The notes beneath the pieces were generated by a model, which had not been told where the DNA came from, made no database searches, and worked only from the letters and a program-made list of their open reading frames with translations. A DNA stretch of 64,000 nt from Demequina zhanjiangensis (GTDB lineage Bacteria > Actinomycetota > Actinomycetes > Actinomycetales > Demequinaceae). Location: contig NZ_JAUHPV010000002.1 in the NCBI RefSeq assembly GCF_030418315.1, positions 124,001-188,000 on the forward strand, written 5' to 3'. Each line of letters starts with the position of its first letter. Positions within the stretch are counted from its first letter, which is position 1. Position numbers and translations under genes: made by a program. Shown piece by piece: positions 37,329-46,768 of the stretch.

Positions 37329-39098
37329 TTAGCAGTCAGTGGAACGCGAGTCGACACCCACAAAGTTAAGAACAGGTTTCGAACCGGGGGTGACAAATAC
37401 GTCCCCAAGAGTGAAAAAGGGCGATTCGGGCATCACGGTCATCGTGATCTCGATGGCCTCGCCAGGCGAGAGCGCGACCGGCACGATCACCAGATCCCTG
37501 CCCGCGACCACCGCAGGCGAGTAGCCCACCACATCGCCGTCCGCCATCACGCTCAACACCCGATACCCGTCCGGCACGATCAGCGAGAAGTTCGCCCCGA
37601 AGTCACCCTCCGGCACCCAGTTGCCCACGCCCGCGATGTAGTCAGGAAGCTCCGCCACCTCTCCGTCGAAGCTGTGCGTCGCGTTGACCGTCAGCGTCCC
37701 CTCGGCCACCCGGCCGTCGGACACGCACATGCTCACCTCAGCGCCCGCGGTGACGTCCACGTAGTAGCCGATCTTGGAGCCCGAGCCGTCGTTGACGAAC
37801 ACGCCCGACCACACGCCGTCACGCAGCTGGTCACCACCCGCGGGCGTCGGCTGCAGAAGCGACTGCTCCTCCGGCACCGACGACCAGACCGAGAAACGTG
37901 ACTCGTCGAGCGCCCGAGCCAGACCGTCGACCGCCGACGACCCCCCAGCCAGCACCTCCGAGAACAGCGCACCCGCCGTCGCCGCGAAGAACGCGTCCTG
38001 CTCGCTCGGATCCTCGAACTCGAAGTACGCGCGATTGAGCATCACCTCGGCCAGGTTCGCGCCGCTCACCTCGATGCCCGCGACCTCCTGCGCCGGGGCG
38101 TCACCCAGCATGTAGCCGAGCGCCACCGGATCCAGGCTCACCACCCCGTCGGGCGCCTGCCCCGTCTCCCGCTCCACGAACTCGCTCATGAGCTGAGCCG
38201 CCCGCGGGAACTGCGGAGTGAAGTTCACGTCCTGCGCATACAGCGCGATCGCCTCACCGAAGGCGTCGATCTCCTCCTGCGTCGCACCCTCGATCGGCTC
38301 GCGCGGGATGTTCAGCTCGCCGGCCGAGTAGTACTCGCCCATCAGCGGACGACCGTCATCGATCGTCACCATGATCACCGCGCCCGGGATGCCCCCCGAC
38401 GCACGCGGCTCCGCATTGTTCTGCAGCATCACCGCATACGTGCGCGGCCCCTCGCCGCCCAGCATCCCCGGCAGCAGCTGAGACAGCGTCGTCGCGTCGT
38501 CCACCAGAGCGACCAGGTCGTCCAGCTGGCCCGTCAGATCGCCGAAGGCCTCACCCACGACCGCCACTGAACCCGACGTGTCCACCGCATCCAACGCGTC
38601 GATCTGATCGCGCAGCACCGACTGCACCTGCTCCAGAGTGGGCCGATACGGCTCCATCAGGAACGGATCGATACGACCGTCCGTGAACTCCGGATTCGCG
38701 AGCGCATCCAGATCCTCCAGCTGCGAGAGAGGCGTCAAGGCCTCATCCGCGAGCGCCCTCACCGCAACTCCCGCCGCCTGCAGCGGCCGCACCTGATCCT
38801 GCACCCACGGGATCTGGGCCGCCAGCCACCACTGCGGGCCCTGCGTGTGATCCGCGAAACCGTTCGCCGCCACCGAGAGGGTCTCCACCTCAGCCCTGAG
38901 AGTCACCACATCCCGCGCCGACACCGCCTCCTGCGCGCGCGCCGCCGACGCCTGCAACGTCTCCGCCTCAGCCCTCGCCTGCCACGCATCCCAGCCCAGC
39001 AGACCCGCCCACGCAAACAGGACGAAAAGGAAACCAGCGACCAGCCACCAGCCCCACCGGCGCCGCCTAGGCGCCGCATGGACTGGCGGTCGCACCAT
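37329..39098 (-). CDS. DUF4012 membrane-anchored extracellular protein (copy 1)
   Basis: Encodes 589 residues. A basic N-terminus (APRRRRWG) and one membrane helix (about 17-36) anchor a large extracellular part with a helical stretch (about 40-120) and the DUF4012 domain (about 210-560; QNNAEPRASGGIPGAV and LDPVALGYMLG are typical). DUF4012 proteins occur in actinobacterial EPS clusters, and some may belong to a family that attaches polymers to the cell wall, but their activity is unproven. It is divergent from the phosphatase gene by 44 bp. GAGGGG precedes the ATG. Confidence 0.88.
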   Translation of the reverse strand: MVRPPVHAAPRRRRWGWWLVAGFLFVLFAWAGLLGWDAWQARAEAETLQASAARAQEAVSARDVVTLRAEVETLSVAANGFADHTQGPQWWLAAQIPWVQDQVRPLQAAGVAVRALADEALTPLSQLEDLDALANPEFTDGRIDPFLMEPYRPTLEQVQSVLRDQIDALDAVDTSGSVAVVGEAFGDLTGQLDDLVALVDDATTLSQLLPGMLGGEGPRTYAVMLQNNAEPRASGGIPGAVIMVTIDDGRPLMGEYYSAGELNIPREPIEGATQEEIDAFGEAIALYAQDVNFTPQFPRAAQLMSEFVERETGQAPDGVVSLDPVALGYMLGDAPAQEVAGIEVSGANLAEVMLNRAYFEFEDPSEQDAFFAATAGALFSEVLAGGSSAVDGLARALDESRFSVWSSVPEEQSLLQPTPAGGDQLRDGVWSGVFVNDGSGSKIGYYVDVTAGAEVSMCVSDGRVAEGTLTVNATHSFDGEVAELPDYIAGVGNWVPEGDFGANFSLIVPDGYRVLSVMADGDVVGYSPAVVAGRDLVIVPVALSPGEAIEITMTVMPESPFFTLGDVFVTPGSKPVLNFVGVDSRSTDC

Positions 39099-39142
39099 GC
39101 ATCCCCTCTACACTGGGCCCGAGTTCCTCGGGGGTACCAGCC

Positions 39143-39697
39143 ATGACATCAATCCTGACCGTCTGCACCGGCAACATCTGCCGGTCGCCTGCCGCGGCCA
39201 TCGCGCTCCAAGGCTACCTGGGCGACATCGCACAGCTGAGCAGCGCAGGCGTCGCCGCACTCGTCGACGAAGGCCTGCCCATCGCCATGTCCCTCGCACT
39301 CGAGGAGCACGGACTCGACGGCCGCGGCCACCACGCCCGCATGCTCACCCCCCGCATCGTCGACGACAGCGACCTCATCATCGCCATGACCGCCGAACAC
39401 CGCCGACGCATCGTCTCCGAAAGCCCCCGCGCCCTCAAGCGGTCCTTCCTCTACATGGAGCTGGTCGCCGCCGCCCGCGCCGGAGCGCCGCTGCCCGGAG
39501 ACACCCCCGCCGAACGCGTCGCCAACATCGCCCCCGCCATCCAGGCCTACCGCCCCTACCTCGCCGGCCAGGACATCCCCGACGTCCCCGACCCCTACCG
39601 TCGGCCCCAAGAGGTGTACGACGAGGTGGCCACCATGATCGTCGCCGGCGCCGGAGACATCGCCGCCTGGGTGCGACCCGAGGACGACGGGCGCTAG
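39143..39697 (+). CDS. Low-molecular-weight protein-tyrosine phosphatase (Wzb-type)
   Basis: Encodes 184 residues. The P-loop CTGNICRS (Cys8 to Ser15, Arg14 conserved) and the general-acid Asp in DVPDPYRR (near residue 150) are intact. It would dephosphorylate the tyrosine tails of the three Wzc kinases and is the only obviously active tyrosine phosphatase of this type among the EPS genes. It starts 44 bp from the divergent DUF4012 gene; TACACT is a possible -10 box. Its intact site contrasts with the degenerate one in the kinase fusion at 16537. Confidence 0.9.
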   Translation: MTSILTVCTGNICRSPAAAIALQGYLGDIAQLSSAGVAALVDEGLPIAMSLALEEHGLDGRGHHARMLTPRIVDDSDLIIAMTAEHRRRIVSESPRALKRSFLYMELVAAARAGAPLPGDTPAERVANIAPAIQAYRPYLAGQDIPDVPDPYRRPQEVYDEVATMIVAGAGDIAAWVRPEDDGR

Positions 39698-39721
39698 GCG
39701 AGGCCGGCCCGCGCGAAGGCG

Positions 39722-40306
39722 CTAGTCGCCGAAGACCGCCGACGCCGCCTCCGGGACAGGCTCGCCGCACGCCCCCTGGACCCACGCCTTCACCGTCGCG
39801 CCCGACTGATAGGCGTAGAAGTAGGCCCACAGCACCGGCGTCATCGGCTCCTCGGCCTCGAGCATCAGCACCTCGCCGTCGAAGCAGCTCCGCACGATCA
39901 TCCTCGAGCGCGAGATGTGGTGCGTCACCGTGATCACCGCAGCGCTGTCCCACCCGCGCGCCGCCGCCTCATCCCGCAACCACTGCGCCTCACCACGCGT
40001 CGTGAACGGCTCCGGCTTCGCACAGGCGACGACCCCGTCGGGCGCCGCACACGCCTCCTGCGCCAGCTCATAGGTGCCCTCCGCGATCTCCGGATCCAAC
40101 GACACCAGCACGTGATCCGTCAGCCCGTCCGCCACCAGCTGCTGCGCGATCTCCATCCGCTCATCCGTCGGCGGGCCCAAGACCAAGGCGACATCCACGT
40201 CGGCCGGCTCATCATGCGCAGGAGCGACCAGGAACGGCCACCCCACCGCCACCACACCCGCGACAGCCACGACCGCCGCGAGCGTCCACATCGCCGCACG
40301 TCGCAT
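39722..40306 (-). CDS. YdcF/SanA-like (DUF218) membrane protein
   Basis: Encodes 194 residues with an N-terminal membrane helix (about 6-27) and an extracellular domain with VALVLGPPTDERMEIA, RGEAQWLRDEA and AVITVTHHISRSRMI, the DUF218 pattern. Related proteins (SanA, ElyC) affect envelope integrity and lipid-carrier use. It is convergent with the phosphatase gene. Two Cys pairs may form disulfides. The exact function is unknown. Confidence 0.75.
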   Translation of the reverse strand: MRRAAMWTLAAVVAVAGVVAVGWPFLVAPAHDEPADVDVALVLGPPTDERMEIAQQLVADGLTDHVLVSLDPEIAEGTYELAQEACAAPDGVVACAKPEPFTTRGEAQWLRDEAAARGWDSAAVITVTHHISRSRMIVRSCFDGEVLMLEAEEPMTPVLWAYFYAYQSGATVKAWVQGACGEPVPEAASAVFGD

Positions 40307-40364
40307 GCGGCACAGGGTAGCGGGCGGGAGGTGGCTGGCGGCAGCGTCGGGCTGGCGGGTAGCG

Positions 40365-40412
40365 CGTCGGGCGGGTGAAGCGTCGGCCGGGTGAGACGTC
40401 GGGCGGGTGAAA
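40365..40412. repeat. 16-bp tandem repeat, three copies
   Basis: CGTCGGSCGGGTGARR is repeated at 40365, 40381 and 40397, with a partial fourth copy after it. It lies between the YdcF-like gene start and the terminator of the twin-peptide genes. Confidence 0.75.
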
Positions 40413-40435
40413 CGTCGGCCCCGCGTCCGGGCGTG

Positions 40436-40470
40436 AAAAAGCCCCGCCGAGAGGTCTCTCGACGGGGCTC
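40436..40470 (-). terminator. Rho-independent terminator after the twin-peptide genes
   Basis: The hairpin AGCCCCGTCGAGAG/CTCTCGGCGGGGCT is followed by TTTTT on the minus strand, 25 bp past the stop of the 43-aa peptide gene. It is a classical intrinsic terminator, with a strong U-tract for this high-GC DNA. Confidence 0.9.
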
Positions 40471-40494
40471 GCTAGGTCAGCGGCTGAGGTCAGA

Positions 40495-40626
40495 TCAGCG
40501 GATGTCAGTCTTCGAGGTGGCCGACATGGCGTCCGCGATCTCGTCCTGCACCGACGCGGGCAGGTTGGCGAACTGGCGCTTCTCGGACTTCTTGTAGAAG
40601 CCGGAGAACAGCGAGGAACCGATCAT
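40495..40626 (-). CDS. 43-aa small peptide ending DAMSATSKTDIR (peptide B)
   Basis: Encodes 43 residues with AAGGAG 7 bp before the ATG. The N-terminal half is basic and aromatic (FYKKSEKRQF). The C-terminal half has ANLPASVQDEI and ends DAMSATSKTDIR, identical over the last 12 residues to the 42-aa peptide upstream. It has no signal peptide or Cys. The T-DIR ending recalls DUF1127 (YjiS-like) small proteins, whose C-termini read like RSDI; a RiPP-like precursor is another option, but no maturation enzyme is adjacent. The conserved end and good ribosome site argue it is real. Confidence 0.75.
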   Translation of the reverse strand: MIGSSLFSGFYKKSEKRQFANLPASVQDEIADAMSATSKTDIR

Positions 40627-40689
40627 GGTTGTCTCCTTCGTATCTCAGAGGGTGTGCCGCACGGCAGGTGCGACGGAGGTAGAAGCGGT

Positions 40690-40706
40690 GCAGCCCTGAC
40701 GGCTGC
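40690..40706 (-). promoter_or_regulatory. Hairpin between the twin-peptide genes
   Basis: GCAGCC-N5-GGCTGC lies in the 155-bp spacer between the peptide genes. A second small stem (TGCCG/CGGCA at 40655-40666) is closer to peptide B. They could affect processing or relative expression; neither looks like a terminator. Confidence 0.3.
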
Positions 40707-40781
40707 CGCTCGGAAGCGCCGAGACCGAGCCGCTCAGGGCAGCGCCCCGGCACGATCCCTGGCGAGAGTTGACGAACATCG

Positions 40782-40910
40782 TCAGCGGATGTCGGTCTTG
40801 GAGGTGGCGGACATCGCGTCGAGGATCTCGTCACGCGTGTGCGCCGGGAGGTCGCTGTAGGCAAGACCGGTCGACATACGGCCGATCACTGCGCTGATCA
40901 CGTCGAGCAT
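40782..40910 (-). CDS. 42-aa small peptide ending DAMSATSKTDIR (peptide A)
   Basis: Encodes 42 residues with AAGGAG 7 bp before the ATG at 40910. A variable, hydrophobic N-terminal half (MLDVISAVIGRM) is followed by YSDLPAHTRDEIL and DAMSATSKTDIR. Shared positions with peptide B are L-P-A-x(3)-D-E-I-x and the identical last 12 residues. A promoter and hairpin leader lie upstream; the terminator lies past peptide B, so both may be on one RNA. Function unknown; options are a DUF1127-like regulatory protein, a signalling peptide or a modified peptide precursor. Confidence 0.75.
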   Translation of the reverse strand: MLDVISAVIGRMSTGLAYSDLPAHTRDEILDAMSATSKTDIR

Positions 40911-40983
40911 TGGGCTCTCCTTCTCTTCGGTGTGAGACCGGGAGCCTGGACGTGGAGTCCGGAATCCCGGTTGGCCCCACGTT

Positions 40984-41042
40984 GGGACAATGCAAAAGTC
41001 CCGCCATGACCGTTGCTTTGGCGACGTTGTCATCAGCGGGAC
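40984..41042 (-). promoter_or_regulatory. Terminator-like hairpin in the twin-peptide leader
   Basis: On the minus strand GTCCCGC pairs with GCGGGAC (41036-41042 with 40998-41004), plus ATGAC/GTCAT inside, followed by TTTT. The 3' arm GGGAC can instead pair with a downstream GTCCC (40984-40988) around a 9-nt loop. It begins about 3 nt after the predicted RNA start, with no leftward gene before it to terminate. It may be an attenuator, or the end of a small RNA of about 50 nt. Confidence 0.5.
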
Positions 41043-41051
41043 GCTGTGTTC

Positions 41052-41081
41052 ACTATATCGGCCGACGGGGGTGGAATCCAA
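41052..41081 (-). promoter_or_regulatory. Predicted promoter of the twin-peptide genes
   Basis: Reading leftward, TTGGAT (41076-41081), an 18-bp spacer and TATAGT (41052-41057) resemble a SigA-type promoter. RNA would start near 41045, giving a leader of about 135 nt before peptide A. The 400-bp gap from 40911 to 41307 holds this promoter and leader; nothing else was recognised in it. Confidence 0.5.
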
Positions 41082-41307
41082 GCCCCCTGTCGCTCAGATC
41101 ACACAGATTGCCGGATTGCATGCATGACCTGTCCCGGTGCGGGCGGTTTGCGAGGTTCCAGGGACGACGCTGGGGCGGCGCGGGGTCGCGGGAGGGCTGG
41201 CGGCGGGGGTGGCGCGGGGTGGCGACGGGGTGGCGACGGGGGTGGTGGCCCGCCCTTCGAGCGCACCTTTTGTCCCAATTGTCAGACCCTCCTGATTGGC
41301 TAGAGCC

Positions 41308-42891
41308 ATGGACATCTCGACCGCCGCGATCGACGAAGCGCTCGACGCGCTGCGCGCGCTCGACGGTCAGGCCACGTCCGCGCTGAGCCCCGACGCCCTC
41401 GTGGACGGTGTCCAGCTCCTCACCCGGATCGGCCGCCTGTCCGACGCCCTGCGGGCTGCGCTCGCCGGCGAGCTCGAACGCCGGTCCACCCCCTCCAAGG
41501 GGGACGCGGGCGTCGCGAGGCAGCAGGGCTACCGCGACGTGCGGCGCATGATCGCCTCCACCGCAGGCACCTCCCTCGCGGAGGCGCAACGGTCCATCGA
41601 CGCCGGACGCATGCTGCTCGGCGCCGCTGCGGGGAGCGACCCGGCGGCCGACGCGAGCGGTCCCGGGCTCCCTGGCGCGCCTAACGTGGGAGGCAGCGAT
41701 GGGCTGGACAGTGGGCTGAGCGGTGGGCTGAGCGGCGGACTGGGAGGCGGGCTGGGCTCCGGGGGTGCGTCGTCCGCGACCGCGCCTGCTGGGCGTGAGC
41801 CGGCCGGGCGTGCGCATCTCGCCTCCGCCGTGCGAGCCGGCGACATCGCTGTGGACCGCGCCGCCCTCGTCACCCGCACACTCGACCGGATCACCGAGCT
41901 GCGCGCCGCTCTCGCGAGCACCCCCGACAGCTTCACTCCACCCGAATGGACCGACCCCGCAGTCCTCGAGGAGCGACTCGTCGACGGCGCCCTGCGCCTC
42001 ACCTACCGCGACCTCAACCGCATGTGCCAGCGCGCCATCGCCGCCACCGACCCACGCGCCTGGGAACAGCAGGAAGAACGGCAGCACCGCGAGCGCCACG
42101 TCACCATCGCCCACCAGGACGACGGCATGGTCAGCATCCGCGCCGTGCTCGACCCGCCTTCGGCAGCCCCCGTCATCGCGCTCCTCGAGGCGCACGTCAA
42201 GGACGGACTGCGCCGACGCAGTGACGCCATCAAGGAAGGCGCCGAGCACGTCGACGACCGCACGGCCATCCAGATGCGCGCCGACGCGCTCACCTCCATC
42301 GCCCGGCACGCGCTCGGCTGCGACCAGACGCCCAGCGGCGTCACCACCACCGTGGTCGTGCGCATCAACCACGACGACCTGCAGGACGGGCTCGGCATCG
42401 GCGACGCCGACGACCTCCCCCACCCCGTCAGCGCAGGCGCCGCCCGGCGCATGGCCGCCGACGCACAGATCATCCCCGCCGTGCTCGGCACCGACTCGCA
42501 GGTGCTCGACCTCGGCCGCAGCGTCCGGCTCTTCACCAAAGCGCAACGCCTCGCACTCGGAGAACGCGACGGAGGCTGCGCCATCTGCCACGCCCCACCC
42601 TCCTACTGCGAAGCGCACCACATCCGCTGGTGGACCAGAGACCGCGGGCCCACCGACCTTGAGAACGGCGTGCTGTTGTGCGTCTCCTGCCACCACCGCA
42701 TCCACGACGAGACATGGAAAGTCCACACCGACGGCAACGACATCCGCGTGACTCCGCCGCGCTCCGCCTTCCCCGCGCCACGCACCACCAGACCCCCAGG
42801 CCGCCACGACCGCCCGCACTCCAACCCGCCCCGACGCCCCCACCGAGTCGGCGGGCGTGCCGCACTCGACCCATCGCGACGGCCGGAGTAG
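41308..42891 (+). CDS. DUF222 / HNH endonuclease protein (13E12-repeat family)
   Basis: Encodes 527 residues from ATG at 41308. An N-terminal DUF222 domain (about 30-340) is interrupted near 130-155 by a Gly/Leu/Ser low-complexity insert (GLSGGLSGGLGGGLG). A C-terminal HNH domain (about 428-475) has CAICHAPPSYCEAHHI and CVSCHHRIHD, that is two Cys pairs and the HH motif. Members are multi-copy and possibly mobile in actinobacteria, with unclear function. Short repeats flank its 3' end. Confidence 0.9.
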   Translation: MDISTAAIDEALDALRALDGQATSALSPDALVDGVQLLTRIGRLSDALRAALAGELERRSTPSKGDAGVARQQGYRDVRRMIASTAGTSLAEAQRSIDAGRMLLGAAAGSDPAADASGPGLPGAPNVGGSDGLDSGLSGGLSGGLGGGLGSGGASSATAPAGREPAGRAHLASAVRAGDIAVDRAALVTRTLDRITELRAALASTPDSFTPPEWTDPAVLEERLVDGALRLTYRDLNRMCQRAIAATDPRAWEQQEERQHRERHVTIAHQDDGMVSIRAVLDPPSAAPVIALLEAHVKDGLRRRSDAIKEGAEHVDDRTAIQMRADALTSIARHALGCDQTPSGVTTTVVVRINHDDLQDGLGIGDADDLPHPVSAGAARRMAADAQIIPAVLGTDSQVLDLGRSVRLFTKAQRLALGERDGGCAICHAPPSYCEAHHIRWWTRDRGPTDLENGVLLCVSCHHRIHDETWKVHTDGNDIRVTPPRSAFPAPRTTRPPGRHDRPHSNPPRRPHRVGGRAALDPSRRPE

Positions 42892-42929
42892 ATCGCGACA
42901 TCCGGACTAGATTGCGGCAACCGGAGTAG
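42883..42929. repeat. 19-bp imperfect tandem repeat at the HNH gene end
   Basis: CCGGAGTAGATCGCGACAT, CCGGACTAGATTGCGGCAA and a partial CCGGAGTAG follow each other. The first unit contains the TAG stop of the HNH gene. Confidence 0.6.
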
Positions 42930-42939
42930 CCGGGCGTGC

Positions 42940-43023
42940 GCGGCTCGGCCTGGTCACCCGTCGCGCGCGGCTAGTCCCGTGCGACGCAACCCCCGCGGCT
43001 CGGCCTGGTCACCCGTCGCGCGC
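42940..43023. repeat. 29-bp direct repeat, two copies
   Basis: A 29-bp sequence starting GCGGCTCGGCCTGGTCACCC and ending GTCGCGCGC occurs at 42940-42968 and 42995-43023, 26 bp apart. The copies are identical. The gap from 42892 to 43160 has these repeats and the ribosome site of the next gene, and no other gene. Confidence 0.85.
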
Positions 43024-43160
43024 AGCCGACCTAGCCGAGAACCGCCTCCTTCTGGTCTGATGGGGACCGGGAACCCGGTCGAGCGGGAACCGGGGCTTGG
43101 TCCGGTCCGGACCAGGAGCGCGACGCCCACCAGCGTCGCACCAGCGGAGGGGAGGGCGCC

Positions 43161-44453
43161 ATGAAGATCCTGACGATGCACGCCTTCTACCAAGTGCTCG
43201 GCGGCGAGGACATCAGCCACCGCACCGAGACCGCCTACCTGCGCGAACGCGGACACGACGTGCACGACCTCACCGTCCACAACGCCGACCTCGGCGACCT
43301 CAGCACCCCCGCCCGCATCCGCGCCACCCTCTCCAACCCCCGCACCGGCGAAGCCGCCCGCCAAGCCATCGCCCGCTTCCAGCCCGACGTCGCCTACTGC
43401 AATAACCTCTTCCCCGGACTCTCCAGCTCCGTCATCGCCGCCTGCAACGACGCCCACATCCCCGTCGTCCGAGTCCTCCGGAACTACCGCATCACCTGCG
43501 CCGCCGGCTCCCTCTACCGCGACGGCCAACACTGCGACAGCTGCGTCGGCTCCTCACCCCTCCCCGGCATCATCCACGGCTGCTACCGCGGATCCCGCCC
43601 CACCACCGCCATCGCCACCCTCGCCCGCCAACGCGACCTCCACCGCAACCGCGACACCCACTGGATCGCCATCTCCCAGTACGTGCGCGACATCGCCATC
43701 CGCGCCGGACTCGACGCCGACCACATCACCGTCCGACCCAACCTCAGCCAGCCACCTGCCCCCAGCGCAAAGACCGACGGCGCGGGTGCAGGTAGGGACG
43801 CGGCGCAGGCGAGTGGCACAGGTGCAGGCGCGGCGCAGGCGGGCGGCGCGGGCGCGGGCGCGGGCGCGGCGCAGGGAAGTGGCACGGACGCTGTCACCGC
43901 GCGCCCCGGCGGCGACCACCAGCCACCCACCCCCACGGGAGGCGCGCCGACCATCCTGTACGTCGGCCGCGACACCCCCGAGAAGGGCCTGCCGCTCCTG
44001 CTCGACGCCTTCACCACCGTCCGCACCCACCGGCCCGACGCACAGCTCCACATCGTCGGCGCCTCCCGACCCCACGACACCACCCCCGGCGTCACCTGGG
44101 TCGGGTCCGTCCCCCACGAGCAGGTCGCCGCCCGCATGGCCGACGCCACCGTCCTCGCCGTCCCCTCCACCTGGGCCGAACCCTTCGGACGGGTCGTCGT
44201 CGAGGCGCTCGCCGTCGGCACCCCCGTCGTCGCCGCCGCCACCGGAGGACTCGCCGAGCTCGGCGGCCAAAGCGTCGACCTGTTCGACCCCACCTCACCC
44301 GCCCAGCTGGCCGAGCGCCTGCTCGACGCCCTCGCACGCCCCGCCGCCGAGACCGCGCCGCTCGCCCGCGCCCGCTACGACGCCGACTTCGCTCCCGACC
44401 GCTGGTACTCCATCACCATGGACGTGCTGCAGCGCGCCGCCGCAAGCCGCTGA
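43161..44453 (+). CDS. Family 4 glycosyltransferase with Gly/Ala-rich insert
   Basis: Encodes 430 residues; GGAGGGGAGG precedes the ATG. The N-terminus MHAFYQVLGGEDISHRTE and the C-terminal YVGRDTPEKGLPLLLDAF and EPFGRVVVEAL (EX7E) mark a GT-B/GT4 enzyme. Between the two domains (about 206-245) is a low-complexity Gly/Ala/Thr/Gln insert (GAGAGRDAAQASGTGAGAAQ) encoded by repetitive DNA. Cys residues cluster at 113-134. It stands at the left edge of the second EPS locus. The sugar is unknown. Confidence 0.87.
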   Translation: MKILTMHAFYQVLGGEDISHRTETAYLRERGHDVHDLTVHNADLGDLSTPARIRATLSNPRTGEAARQAIARFQPDVAYCNNLFPGLSSSVIAACNDAHIPVVRVLRNYRITCAAGSLYRDGQHCDSCVGSSPLPGIIHGCYRGSRPTTAIATLARQRDLHRNRDTHWIAISQYVRDIAIRAGLDADHITVRPNLSQPPAPSAKTDGAGAGRDAAQASGTGAGAAQAGGAGAGAGAAQGSGTDAVTARPGGDHQPPTPTGGAPTILYVGRDTPEKGLPLLLDAFTTVRTHRPDAQLHIVGASRPHDTTPGVTWVGSVPHEQVAARMADATVLAVPSTWAEPFGRVVVEALAVGTPVVAAATGGLAELGGQSVDLFDPTSPAQLAERLLDALARPAAETAPLARARYDADFAPDRWYSITMDVLQRAAASR

Positions 44454-44521
44454 CCCCGCTGACCTCACTGACCCCGCGGACCATGCGGACCGTGCGCAAG
44501 CCGGGCACCGTCCAGGCAGAA

Positions 44522-44678
44522 GCCGGCGGCGAGACAACCCAGACGGGCAATCCCAGGCTCCAGCCGGCGGCGAGACAACCCAGACGGGCAATCCCAGGCT
44601 CCAGCCGGCGGCGAGACAACGCAGACGGACAGCCCCGGGCTCCAGCCGGCGGCGCGACAACGCAGACGGACCGTCGGC
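44522..44678. repeat. 41-bp tandem repeat, four copies (VNTR)
   Basis: Units begin at 44522, 44563, 44604 and 44645 with GCCGGCGGCGAGACAAC, the last one diverged and cut short. The first two are identical. The array sits between the convergent ends of the GT4 and DUF4012 genes. No coding or RNA function was recognised. Confidence 0.9.
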
Positions 44679-44726
44679 CGGGCGGAGAGGGGGGGAGCCG
44701 ACCGCCCCTGAGGGCACCGCTCCCGC

Positions 44727-46610
44727 TCAGCAGCCCGCCACGTCCACCGTGACCGACGGCTCCCTCGCCCCCGGCGTGACCACCACGTCGTCCATGGCTC
44801 CCGCGCCCTCCAGGTCCAGCTCCAACGTCGTCGACCCGCCCGGCGCCAACACCACCGGCACCTCCACCAGGCGCCGCCCATCCACCGTCTCCGGCGCCAA
44901 GAAGCCCTGCTCGCCGTCCACCACCAGTGACGCCGCCACCGTTCCCCGCGGCGGAACCACCAGCACCGACAGATGCAGCTCACCCCGAGGCACCGCCCCC
45001 ACCCCCTGCGCCACATAGTCAGGCAGGTCCGCCACGTCCCCCTCGAACGTGTGCGTCAACGTGAGCTTCACGGTGCGCGACCCCTCCGTCGGCCCCGTGC
45101 ACGCCCCCGTGACCACTGCCTCCACGTCCAGGTAGTAGCCCATCTTGTTGCCCGAACCGTCGTTCACGTAGATGCCCAAAGCACTCAGGTCCGACGCGTA
45201 ATCCCCCGCGATCGGAGTCTGCGCCAGCAGCTCCTGATCCGAAGCGTCGGCCGACCAGACGAGCAGCCGATGCTCCTCGATCGCCCGCTCCACCCCATCC
45301 ATGGGCCGTGCCGAGCCCGACGACAACGCCCCGAACACCGCCGCAGCCGCCTTGCCGAAGAACACGTCCTGATCGCGCGACCCCGCATAGAGGGCGTACG
45401 CCTCGCTCAACATGAGCTCGGCCACGTTGTCAGCCGTGATCTCCACGCCATCGACCGCCACCGGATCCGCGCCCTCCAGCATCCAGCCGAGCGCGATCGG
45501 GTCGATCGACACGACACCGTCCACCGTCTCCCCCCGGGTCGACTCCCAGAACTCCGTGGCCAGCGCCGCCGCCCGCGGGAAGTCGGGGACCGCCGTCACG
45601 TCCTGCGGGTACGTGGCGAGGCGATAGCTGAGGACCCGCAGCTCATCCTCCGTGACGCCTGCGATCGGGCCGCCGTCCTTCAACATCCACGACGGCACAT
45701 AGTCGCCCGTCGTGAGGCGACCGTCGTCGGCCGTGAGCTCAAGGAACGCACCCGGCACGCCCCCCGTCGCGCGCGGCTCCGCGTTGTTCTGGATCATCAC
45801 CAGGTAGGTGCGCGCGCCCTCGCCCCCCAGCATCGCCGGCAGCAGCTCCGCCACCACGTGCGCGTCACCCACGAGGCCCGACAGCTCCGCCAGGTTGTCC
45901 TGCAACGAGGTGAACTGCTCCGCCAGCGGCTCGACGGTGCCCGTCAGGTCCACGGCCGCCAGCACCTCCCGCTGCTCGTCCAGCGTGGTCGCCGCAAGCG
46001 CCAACGGCTCCCGATAGTCGGCCAGCAGTCCCGGGTCCAGGCGACCGTCCACGAACTGCGGCGACTCCAGCGCCTCCAAGCCCCCGATCGACGCCAGCGG
46101 CACCAGCGCATCCTGGGCGATCCTGTCGACCGCCGAGCCCGCCGCCGACAGCGGCACCACCTGGTCCGCCACCCATGGAACGTGCGCCGCCACCCACCAG
46201 TGCGGCCCGTCCGTCGCCCCCGCGAAGTCCGCCGCGGCCACCGTCAGCTCGGAGACGGCGGCGTTCAATCCGGCGGCGTCCCGGTCCGCGAGCGCGTCCT
46301 GCGCTGCGCTGGCCGATGCCGTGAGGGACTGGGAGGAGCGGTCCAGGGTGCGGGCGTCGAGCGCGAACGCGACACCCATCGCGGCCACGCCCAGCAGCAG
46401 CACGCCGATCACGACGAGCACCACCTTCGGCCAGGTGCGACGCCGAGCGGGTGCTTCTCGACCGGGCGCGTTCTGATGCGTGTCGGTTGCGTCGCGATCC
46501 GACGCGGGCCCTTCCTGGCCCGACGCAGCCATGTCCCGACGCTCGGCAGGTGCTTCTCGACCGGGCGCGTTCTCTTCTTGACGCGCCTCGGGCGCCCCCT
46601 CCTGTGTCAC
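44727..46610 (-). CDS. DUF4012 membrane-anchored extracellular protein (copy 2)
   Basis: Encodes 627 residues from GTG at 46610, chosen because GGAGGT lies 7 bp upstream; the frame is open to 46760, but that would run through a CRP-like site. The cytoplasmic N-terminus carries a repeated NAPGREAPAxRR. One membrane helix (about 62-84) follows, then a helical part and the DUF4012 domain (QNNAEPRATGGVPGAF, IDPIALGWML). It parallels copy 1 at 37329, suggesting one per EPS locus. The molecular role is unproven; attachment of polymer to the cell wall is one possibility. Confidence 0.85.
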   Translation of the reverse strand: MTQEGAPEARQEENAPGREAPAERRDMAASGQEGPASDRDATDTHQNAPGREAPARRRTWPKVVLVVIGVLLLGVAAMGVAFALDARTLDRSSQSLTASASAAQDALADRDAAGLNAAVSELTVAAADFAGATDGPHWWVAAHVPWVADQVVPLSAAGSAVDRIAQDALVPLASIGGLEALESPQFVDGRLDPGLLADYREPLALAATTLDEQREVLAAVDLTGTVEPLAEQFTSLQDNLAELSGLVGDAHVVAELLPAMLGGEGARTYLVMIQNNAEPRATGGVPGAFLELTADDGRLTTGDYVPSWMLKDGGPIAGVTEDELRVLSYRLATYPQDVTAVPDFPRAAALATEFWESTRGETVDGVVSIDPIALGWMLEGADPVAVDGVEITADNVAELMLSEAYALYAGSRDQDVFFGKAAAAVFGALSSGSARPMDGVERAIEEHRLLVWSADASDQELLAQTPIAGDYASDLSALGIYVNDGSGNKMGYYLDVEAVVTGACTGPTEGSRTVKLTLTHTFEGDVADLPDYVAQGVGAVPRGELHLSVLVVPPRGTVAASLVVDGEQGFLAPETVDGRRLVEVPVVLAPGGSTTLELDLEGAGAMDDVVVTPGAREPSVTVDVAGC

Positions 46611-46752
46611 GCCGCGCACCTCCCCCAGAACGGCGACGGCGGGGCCAGCCGGCCTCCCACCACTCGCGACACTACCTCGCACGTCCATGAACAGGCCACA
46701 GACCAGGCACTTTGTCTTAGGTGAAGTATCAACGAATTTTCCCCACACCGGT

Positions 46753-46768
46753 TGTGACATACGTCACA
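46753..46768. promoter_or_regulatory. CRP/GlxR-type operator, perfect consensus
   Basis: TGTGACATACGTCACA matches TGTGA-N6-TCACA exactly. It lies between the divergent DUF4012 gene (start 46610) and the WecG/TagA gene (start 46877), so it may serve both. Actinobacterial GlxR/Crp proteins bind this motif. Confidence 0.7.

What the first reader, a model, noticed from the sequence alone, without database searches (positions are those of the whole stretch)
40436..41081. Twin 42/43-aa peptide genes with identical C-terminal DAMSATSKTDIR
Two tandem small genes, each with AAGGAG at good spacing, differ in their N-terminal halves but share L-P-A-x(3)-D-E-I and the last 12 residues exactly. They sit between a predicted promoter and a strong intrinsic terminator. 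Conserved ends with variable fronts suggest the C-terminus is the functional or recognised part. Possible roles: actinobacterial DUF1127-like RNA-binding regulators, signalling peptides, or precursors of a modified peptide.
Basis: partly seen in the sequence, partly recalled or inferred. Interest (0 to 1): 0.85.

Follow-up and report, generated by a model that had tools for sequence, protein, structure and literature searches.

The report
Demequina microprotein genes with structured leader
Two tiny sister genes turn out to belong to a small, unnamed protein family found so far only in the bacterial genus Demequina, nearly always preceded by the same folded RNA, which makes them a new candidate for RNA-controlled small regulatory proteins.

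Summary
The twins are real: pepA (minus 40782-40910, 42 aa) and pepB (minus 40495-40626, 43 aa) end in the same 12 residues. They belong to an unnamed family: 17 genes in 12 of 44 Demequina genomes, all ending in A-(M/N)-x-ATSxxDI(R/P), under protein-level selection (pS>pN in 120 of 136 pairs). No credible homologue was found outside the genus. (1) A conserved structured leader RNA, not in Rfam, lies between promoter and pepA: 16 copies in 13 of 44 genomes, 15 followed by a family member. Hairpin P1 and stem P2 show covariation. (2) A third small ORF, pepC (40645-40779), sits between the twins and is conserved in 4 genomes; the pepA-pepC-pepB order recurs in D. salsinemoris. DUF1127 membership was tested and not met. 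A trifolitoxin-type modified-peptide reading of pepC is unlikely: YcaO, SagB and TfuA were not detected in its genomes. Most likely the unit is a self-contained gene for a cytosolic microprotein acting by protein contact, with expression set post-transcriptionally by the leader. That role is inferred, and a test of a Shine-Dalgarno-masking switch was negative. Target and trigger are unknown.

The parts
41052..41081 (-). Putative sigma-70 promoter: TTGGAT (41076-41081), 18 nt, TATAGT (41052-41057)
   Evidence: Read from sequence; consensus scan found nothing; TAnnnT within 1 nt of the same place in 14 of 15 loci printed (by eye)
40933..41047 (-). Conserved structured leader RNA (model R1)
   Evidence: 16 copies in 13 of 44 genus genomes, E <= 9e-14, next best E 0.2; no Rfam match at E <= 1 in window 40300-41400
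40998..41042 (-). Hairpin P1 of the leader, followed by UUUU (40994-40997)
   Evidence: both-sided changes kept paired; 0 of 500 shuffles reach the covariation score of P1 and P2 together
40950..40982 (-). Stem P2 (ACGUGG 40977-40982 / CCACGU 40950-40955) with nested hairpin P3 (40959-40970)
   Evidence: P2 pairs in 16 of 16, one compensatory change; P3 predicted independently by RNAalifold and in each of 16 single folds
40938..40943 (-). UCCCGG, possible pseudoknot partner of CCGGGA (40965-40970), within a stretch that can also pair with the Shine-Dalgarno region
   Evidence: Pairing beats 95% of shuffles in 12 of 16 leaders (pseudoknot) and 5 of 16 (anti-SD), mean z -2.0 and -1.6; SD not more buried than controls: hypothesis
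40782..40910 (-). pepA, 42 aa microprotein gene (SD AAGGAG 40917-40922)
40645..40779 (-). pepC, 44 aa ORF starting 2 nt after the pepA stop codon; conserved GSCRG...RQGCTA
   Evidence: 4 of 44 genus genomes; pS>pN in its frame in 6 of 6 pairs, against 2 of 6 and 0 of 6 in the other two frames
40495..40626 (-). pepB, 43 aa microprotein gene (SD AAGGAG 40633-40638), no leader of its own
40436..40470 (-). Intrinsic terminator
   Evidence: a terminator-like hairpin in 11 of 15 units examined (9 by scan; 2 more by pattern)

Best explanation
The region is one short, self-contained operon (promoter, structured leader RNA, pepA, pepC, pepB, terminator). It makes cytosolic microproteins of about 42 residues, predicted as two helices, that act by binding a cellular partner. 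The constant LPxxxRDExxxAMxATSxxDIR half is the common contact and the subtype-specific N-terminal helix gives specificity. The leader folds into P1 and P2/P3 and tunes expression after transcription starts, either by attenuation at P1 with its U tract or by a pseudoknot competing with the ribosome-binding site. Shown: the family, its frame, selection on the protein, the leader, and P1 and P2 covariation. Inferred: that the leader regulates, which way it acts, and that the protein works by protein contact.
For: 17 homologous genes in 12 of 44 genus genomes, in several unrelated neighbourhoods, so the unit stands alone. Over the last 22 codons mean pS 0.47 against pN 0.26, pS>pN in 120 of 136 pairs; G035 against G040 has 10 synonymous and 0 nonsynonymous changes. 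The leader occurs 16 times, 15 of them directly before a family gene. Covariation on 15 leaders: 14 cells with both-sided change in 5 pairs; 0 of 500 shuffles reach the cell count, 1 of 500 the pair count. P2 is 100% paired in 16 sequences. RNAalifold finds P1, P2 and P3 unaided. Terminator-like hairpins follow 11 of 15 units, so the peptide is probably the end product and not an attenuation leader for the next gene. AlphaFold gives two helices, 4-18 and 24-39.
Against: The SD is not more buried in the 16 leaders than in 22 control gene starts (mean unpaired 0.35 against 0.38, p 0.40), and blocking the proposed anti-SD strand does not free it consistently. The anti-SD pairing beats 95% of shuffles in only 5 of 16 leaders, the pseudoknot in 12 of 16, and the pseudoknot competes with hairpin P3. 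P2 has a single compensatory change, reached by 24 of 500 shuffles; for P1 and P2 together 59 of 500 shuffles reach the number of further pair types. The structure tested was read from these same sequences. The AlphaFold model is weak (pLDDT 66.7, pTM 0.36). N-terminal amphipathicity stands out (shuffle fraction below 0.1) in only 7 of 18 sequences. No terminator was found for 4 of 15 units. There are no expression data. No partner is known.
Confidence: 0.45

Rival explanations
1. The leader is a true ligand-sensing riboswitch class (metabolite or ion) that switches microprotein synthesis, as glutamine riboswitches do for cyanobacterial IF17.
For: Bases kept outside the stems (invariant TCCCA just before and into P2), compact fold and possible pseudoknot; same leader before a different small ORF in G010.
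Against: Only one genus and essentially one gene family; SD burial no different from controls; no Rfam match.
Confidence: 0.2
2. P1 is a transcription attenuator that senses translation or ribosome stress, and the leader works by premature termination.
For: P1 is a strong hairpin right after the presumed start site, followed by T-rich sequence in many copies; a DUF1127 microprotein gene in Sinorhizobium is controlled by attenuation (abstract of PMC12218461).
Against: U tracts are poor in some copies (for example L020, L022); no conserved upstream ORF: the reading frame running through the leader differs between loci (by eye).
Confidence: 0.2
3. The RNA is the functional product (regulatory sRNA) and the peptide is secondary, or the unit is a dual-function RNA.
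For: Leader in G010 is kept although it precedes another 50-aa ORF instead of the family peptide.
Against: Strong selection on the peptide sequence; pepB and the second G021 gene exist without a leader of their own.
Confidence: 0.1
4. pepC (or all three) are precursors of a modified, exported peptide, for example trifolitoxin-like.
For: pepC has (G/S)G(A/S)RQGCTA; the trifolitoxin core is DIGGSRQGCVA, and RQGC are its four modified residues (passages of PMC8816728); weak NCBIfam TfxA match, E 0.095 and 0.37 over 9 residues, in 2 of 3 pepC proteins scanned, not in the window's own.
Against: No YcaO in the 4 pepC genomes at E <= 0.001 (only 1 of 44 in the genus, G033, which lacks pepC); no SagB-type dehydrogenase at E <= 1e-5 or TfuA at E <= 0.001 there; residues follow the motif in pepC.
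Confidence: 0.05
5. The twins are DUF1127 proteins.
For: Similar size; DI near the C-terminus recalls DUF1127 (recalled, not from a call).
Against: PF06568 does not match any peptide locus in 44 genomes at E <= 1; 15 of 17 members scanned, none hit DUF1127 (E limit 10, though HMMER's filters drop most matches above about 0.1).
Confidence: 0.03

Closest known systems
Type 1 and type 2 glutamine riboswitches (glnA and downstream-peptide motifs, RF01739 and RF01704) controlling IF17 and DUF4278 small proteins
   Same: Structured 5' leader directly before a gene for a small regulatory protein, kept in one lineage (passages of PMC6316151)
   Different: Different organism group, no match to those or any other Rfam family at the leader, no ligand known
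Small DUF1127 proteins (YjiS, CcaF1, Agrobacterium SDPs)
   Same: Size class often under 50 aa; DUF1127 proteins can act by protein contact (abstract of PMC12501420), and one DUF1127 gene is controlled by its mRNA leader (abstract of PMC12218461)
   Different: No PF06568 match at any peptide locus; conserved motif is LPxxxRDExxxAMxATSxxDIR
Trifolitoxin precursor TfxA (NF033430)
   Same: pepC shares a 9-residue GGxRQGCxA-like stretch
   Different: pepC is not pepA/pepB; modification genes not detected; motif is followed by more residues in pepC, but it is the very C-terminus of TfxA

Membership tests
DUF1127 (PF06568) | Match to the PF06568 profile over its cut-off | tested here: not met
   0 of 44 genomes over cut-off; none of the sub-threshold matches listed lies at a peptide locus; no hit in 15 of 17 members scanned
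DUF1127 (PF06568) | RNA binding or PhoR interaction | not testable with these tools
   Needs bench work
Glutamine riboswitch (RF01704, RF01739) | Match to the Rfam covariance model | tested here: not met
   No match at E <= 1 in window 40300-41400; neither family among the 10 matches at E <= 10 in 16 leader loci, none of which overlaps a leader
Riboswitch (any class) | Conserved secondary structure in a 5' UTR | tested here: met
   P1 and P2 covariation; that it is transcribed as a 5' UTR is inferred
Riboswitch (any class) | Structure change that masks or frees the ribosome-binding site, or ends transcription | tested here: inconclusive
   SD burial no different from 22 control starts; U tract after P1 in many but not all copies
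Riboswitch (any class) | Direct ligand binding | not testable with these tools
   Needs in-line probing
Trifolitoxin-type azole peptide | YcaO, SagB-type dehydrogenase or TfuA gene in the genome | tested here: not met
   YcaO not detected in any of the 4 pepC genomes; SagB-type and TfuA not detected in the same 4. That a YcaO (D) protein and TfuA are implicated in trifolitoxin: passages of PMC4603692
Trifolitoxin-type azole peptide | TfxA-like precursor over the NCBIfam cut-off | tested here: not met
   13.0 and 11.1 bits against a cut-off of 35 in two of three pepC proteins scanned, none in the window's own
Attenuation leader peptide of a downstream operon | Same downstream gene and readthrough into it | tested here: not met
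   Downstream genes differ between groups of loci, though some are shared within a group; terminator-like hairpins after 11 of 15 units

The most novel reading that the evidence does not exclude
A new class of cis-regulatory RNA (P1 hairpin plus P2/P3 with a competing pseudoknot), confined to one actinobacterial genus and dedicated to one microprotein family, senses an unknown signal and switches production of microproteins that share a C-terminal contact but carry subtype-specific N-terminal helices. In two species the operon expanded to three microproteins.
Probability: 0.3. Interest if true: 0.7.

Novelty: new variant of a known kind. Interest (0 to 1): 0.52.

Why it matters
Structured leaders that serve only a small-protein gene are uncommon (my judgement, not from a call) and have pointed to new physiology, as with the glutamine riboswitch and IF17. 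Here the RNA and the protein family are both absent from the libraries searched and travel together in one genus, with natural duplicates and one leader carrying another ORF. That makes the leader's trigger and the protein's partner directly testable in D. salsinemoris NBRC 105323, a culture-collection strain with the same three-gene operon.

Tried and rejected
DUF1127 membership: rejected. Phage, plasmid or viral origin: no match of pepB in phages or plasmids; none of 250 pattern stretches in viral contigs encodes a relative and a leader pattern found nothing there; no PHROGs or PADLOC hit for pepA, pepB and pepC. Known protein families: only weak matches below cut-off, the best UBM (E 0.0079, 2 of 15 members), MgtE_N (E 0.017, 3 of 15), NCBIfam PRK06185 (E 0.097, 1 of 15) and two PDB chains (E 0.17 and 0.45); all read as chance helix similarity. 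Wider spread: outside the genus the best protein-profile match was E 3.8e-4 over 25 residues without the tail; three leader-model matches at E 0.002-0.003 in one other genus lie inside a long coding ORF (ORF listed for one of the three) and were dismissed. Leader on other genes: a looser sequence pattern hit 40 of 44 genomes, with noise comparable to its reversed control, but apart from the known leaders I saw none with CCCAACG(T/A)GGGG (by eye). Trifolitoxin-type modification of pepC: rejected as above. Anti-SD switch: not supported. Leader read as an N-terminal extension: the frame open through the leader differs between loci and is closed just upstream in some (by eye). No fold search was run because the model was of low confidence. 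The first version of a script failed and was rerun corrected. Rows left out: A1 (15 rows) lacks the two G012 peptides, which the regular expression missed; A3 (15 rows) lacks the G010 leader; A4 has all 16; six loci with E 0.05-0.94 in long frames (L014-L019) were dropped as chance.

Full report
Observation. On the minus strand the window holds pepA (40782-40910, 42 aa) and pepB (40495-40626, 43 aa), both with AAGGAG 6 nt before ATG, both with LPAxxxDEI and both ending in DAMSATSKTDIR. In the last 12 codons they differ by 4 synonymous and no nonsynonymous changes. A strong terminator follows pepB. A consensus promoter scan found nothing, but TATAGT at 41052-41057 sits where 14 of 15 loci printed have TAnnnT within 1 nt (counted by eye).

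Family. The genome belongs to Demequina by kinship with named hits. Searches of its genus found 17 family genes in 12 of 44 genomes, own included: two each in G000, G004, G012, G021 and G027, one each in G013, G029, G034, G035, G037, G040 and G041. All are 39-44 aa and end in A-(M/N)-(E/S/N)-ATSxxDI(R/P). Across the last 22 codons, mean pS is 0.47 and mean pN 0.26, with pS above pN in 120 of 136 pairs. N-termini differ between subtypes but are conserved within them, so the front is probably functional too (by eye). Among 396 genomes of the order, members of the genus included, nothing credible lay outside the genus. That scan used a single ten-residue pattern and did not list several loci known (for example G004, G029, G035), so it is not exhaustive. 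Pfam, NCBIfam, PHROGs, PADLOC and PDB searches gave only weak matches below any cut-off.

Leader RNA. Upstream of pepA and of 14 other family genes lies a conserved, apparently untranslated leader. A covariance model found 16 copies in 13 of 44 genus genomes at E <= 9e-14, the next best being 0.2. Fifteen precede a family gene; the sixteenth (G010, L066) precedes an unrelated 50-aa ORF. pepB and the second G021 gene have no leader of their own. Hairpin P1 and stem P2 are supported: on 15 sequences 95.6% of cells pair, 14 cells in 5 pairs show both-sided change, and 0 of 500 shuffles reach the cell count or the covariation score, while 59 of 500 reach the number of further pair types. P2 pairs in all 16 sequences with one compensatory change; 24 of 500 shuffles reach that. 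RNAalifold on the untrimmed alignment returns P1, P2 and the nested P3. Rfam has nothing like it. A pseudoknot between CCGGGA and UCCCGG beats 95% of shuffles in 12 of 16 leaders, and a competing pairing of the latter region with the Shine-Dalgarno region in 5 of 16 (mean z -2.0 and -1.6). The SD of these leaders is not more buried than in 22 control gene starts (0.35 against 0.38, p 0.40), which speaks against a simple masking switch.

Third ORF. Between the twins, pepC (40645-40779) starts 2 nt after the pepA stop. It is conserved in 4 of 44 genomes (G000, G004, G021, G029), with GSCRG and RQGCTA invariant. pS is above pN in its own frame in 6 of 6 pairs, against 2 of 6 and 0 of 6 in the other frames. 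G021, named Demequina salsinemoris, carries the same pepA-pepC-pepB order. The tail of pepC resembles the trifolitoxin core DIGGSRQGCVA, whose RQGC residues are modified (passages of PMC8816728), with a weak NCBIfam match in two of three pepC proteins scanned but not in the window's own. YcaO, SagB-type dehydrogenase and TfuA were not detected in the four genomes, so that reading is unlikely.

Setting. The units lie in several different neighbourhoods: beside exopolysaccharide genes, between what looks like ligA and a helicase gene, before what look like pgi, pntA or suf genes (names without a Pfam call are my reading of the sequences). Some loci share a neighbourhood and are probably orthologous. 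Eleven of 15 units have their own terminator-like hairpin (9 by scan; 2 more by pattern). They are therefore best read as independent transcription units and not as leader peptides of a neighbouring operon.

Mechanism. Shown: a protein family under protein-level selection, a covarying leader and a stand-alone unit. Inferred: the leader tunes expression post-transcriptionally, and the product, modelled as two helices with low confidence, acts by contact with a partner through its constant half. The closest working analogue is the glutamine riboswitch with IF17 (passages of PMC6316151); it is not a member of that class. DUF1127 proteins are similar in size, can act by protein contact (abstract of PMC12501420), and one DUF1127 gene has a leader-based attenuator (abstract of PMC12218461), but membership fails.

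Novelty. No paper in the library held both Demequina and riboswitch; two other searches were seen as ranked listings only. The RNA and protein families are not in the libraries searched. I rate it a new variant of a known kind: structured leader plus small protein.

Noticed in passing
L066 (G010) 1501-1806: The same leader RNA precedes a different 50-aa ORF (MFLKFMTPFAG..., 1654-1806), a natural swap of the coding part; the next gene is a C-glycoside deglycosidase/isomerase-like fusion.
   Followed up: partly
L013, L020 and L066, downstream of the small ORF: A shared stretch around GTCGYGCACAANGRCGTGCCG follows the peptide in three loci; its role is unknown.
   Followed up: no
window 37329-46760: Two DUF4012 proteins, a low-molecular-weight tyrosine phosphatase, a DUF218-like protein (below cut-off) and a glycosyltransferase flank the peptides, as in an exopolysaccharide cluster.
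   Followed up: partly
window 41296-42891: DUF222-HNH endonuclease-like gene with a Gly-Leu-rich repeat stretch (41695-41754), oriented away from the peptide operon.
   Followed up: no
L187 and L188 (G033): The only YcaO gene found in 44 Demequina genomes lies next to a SagB-type dehydrogenase match just under its cut-off, a possible azole peptide cluster.
   Followed up: no
L010 (G041) 1994-2257: Two tRNA genes on opposite strands close to the peptide unit.
   Followed up: no
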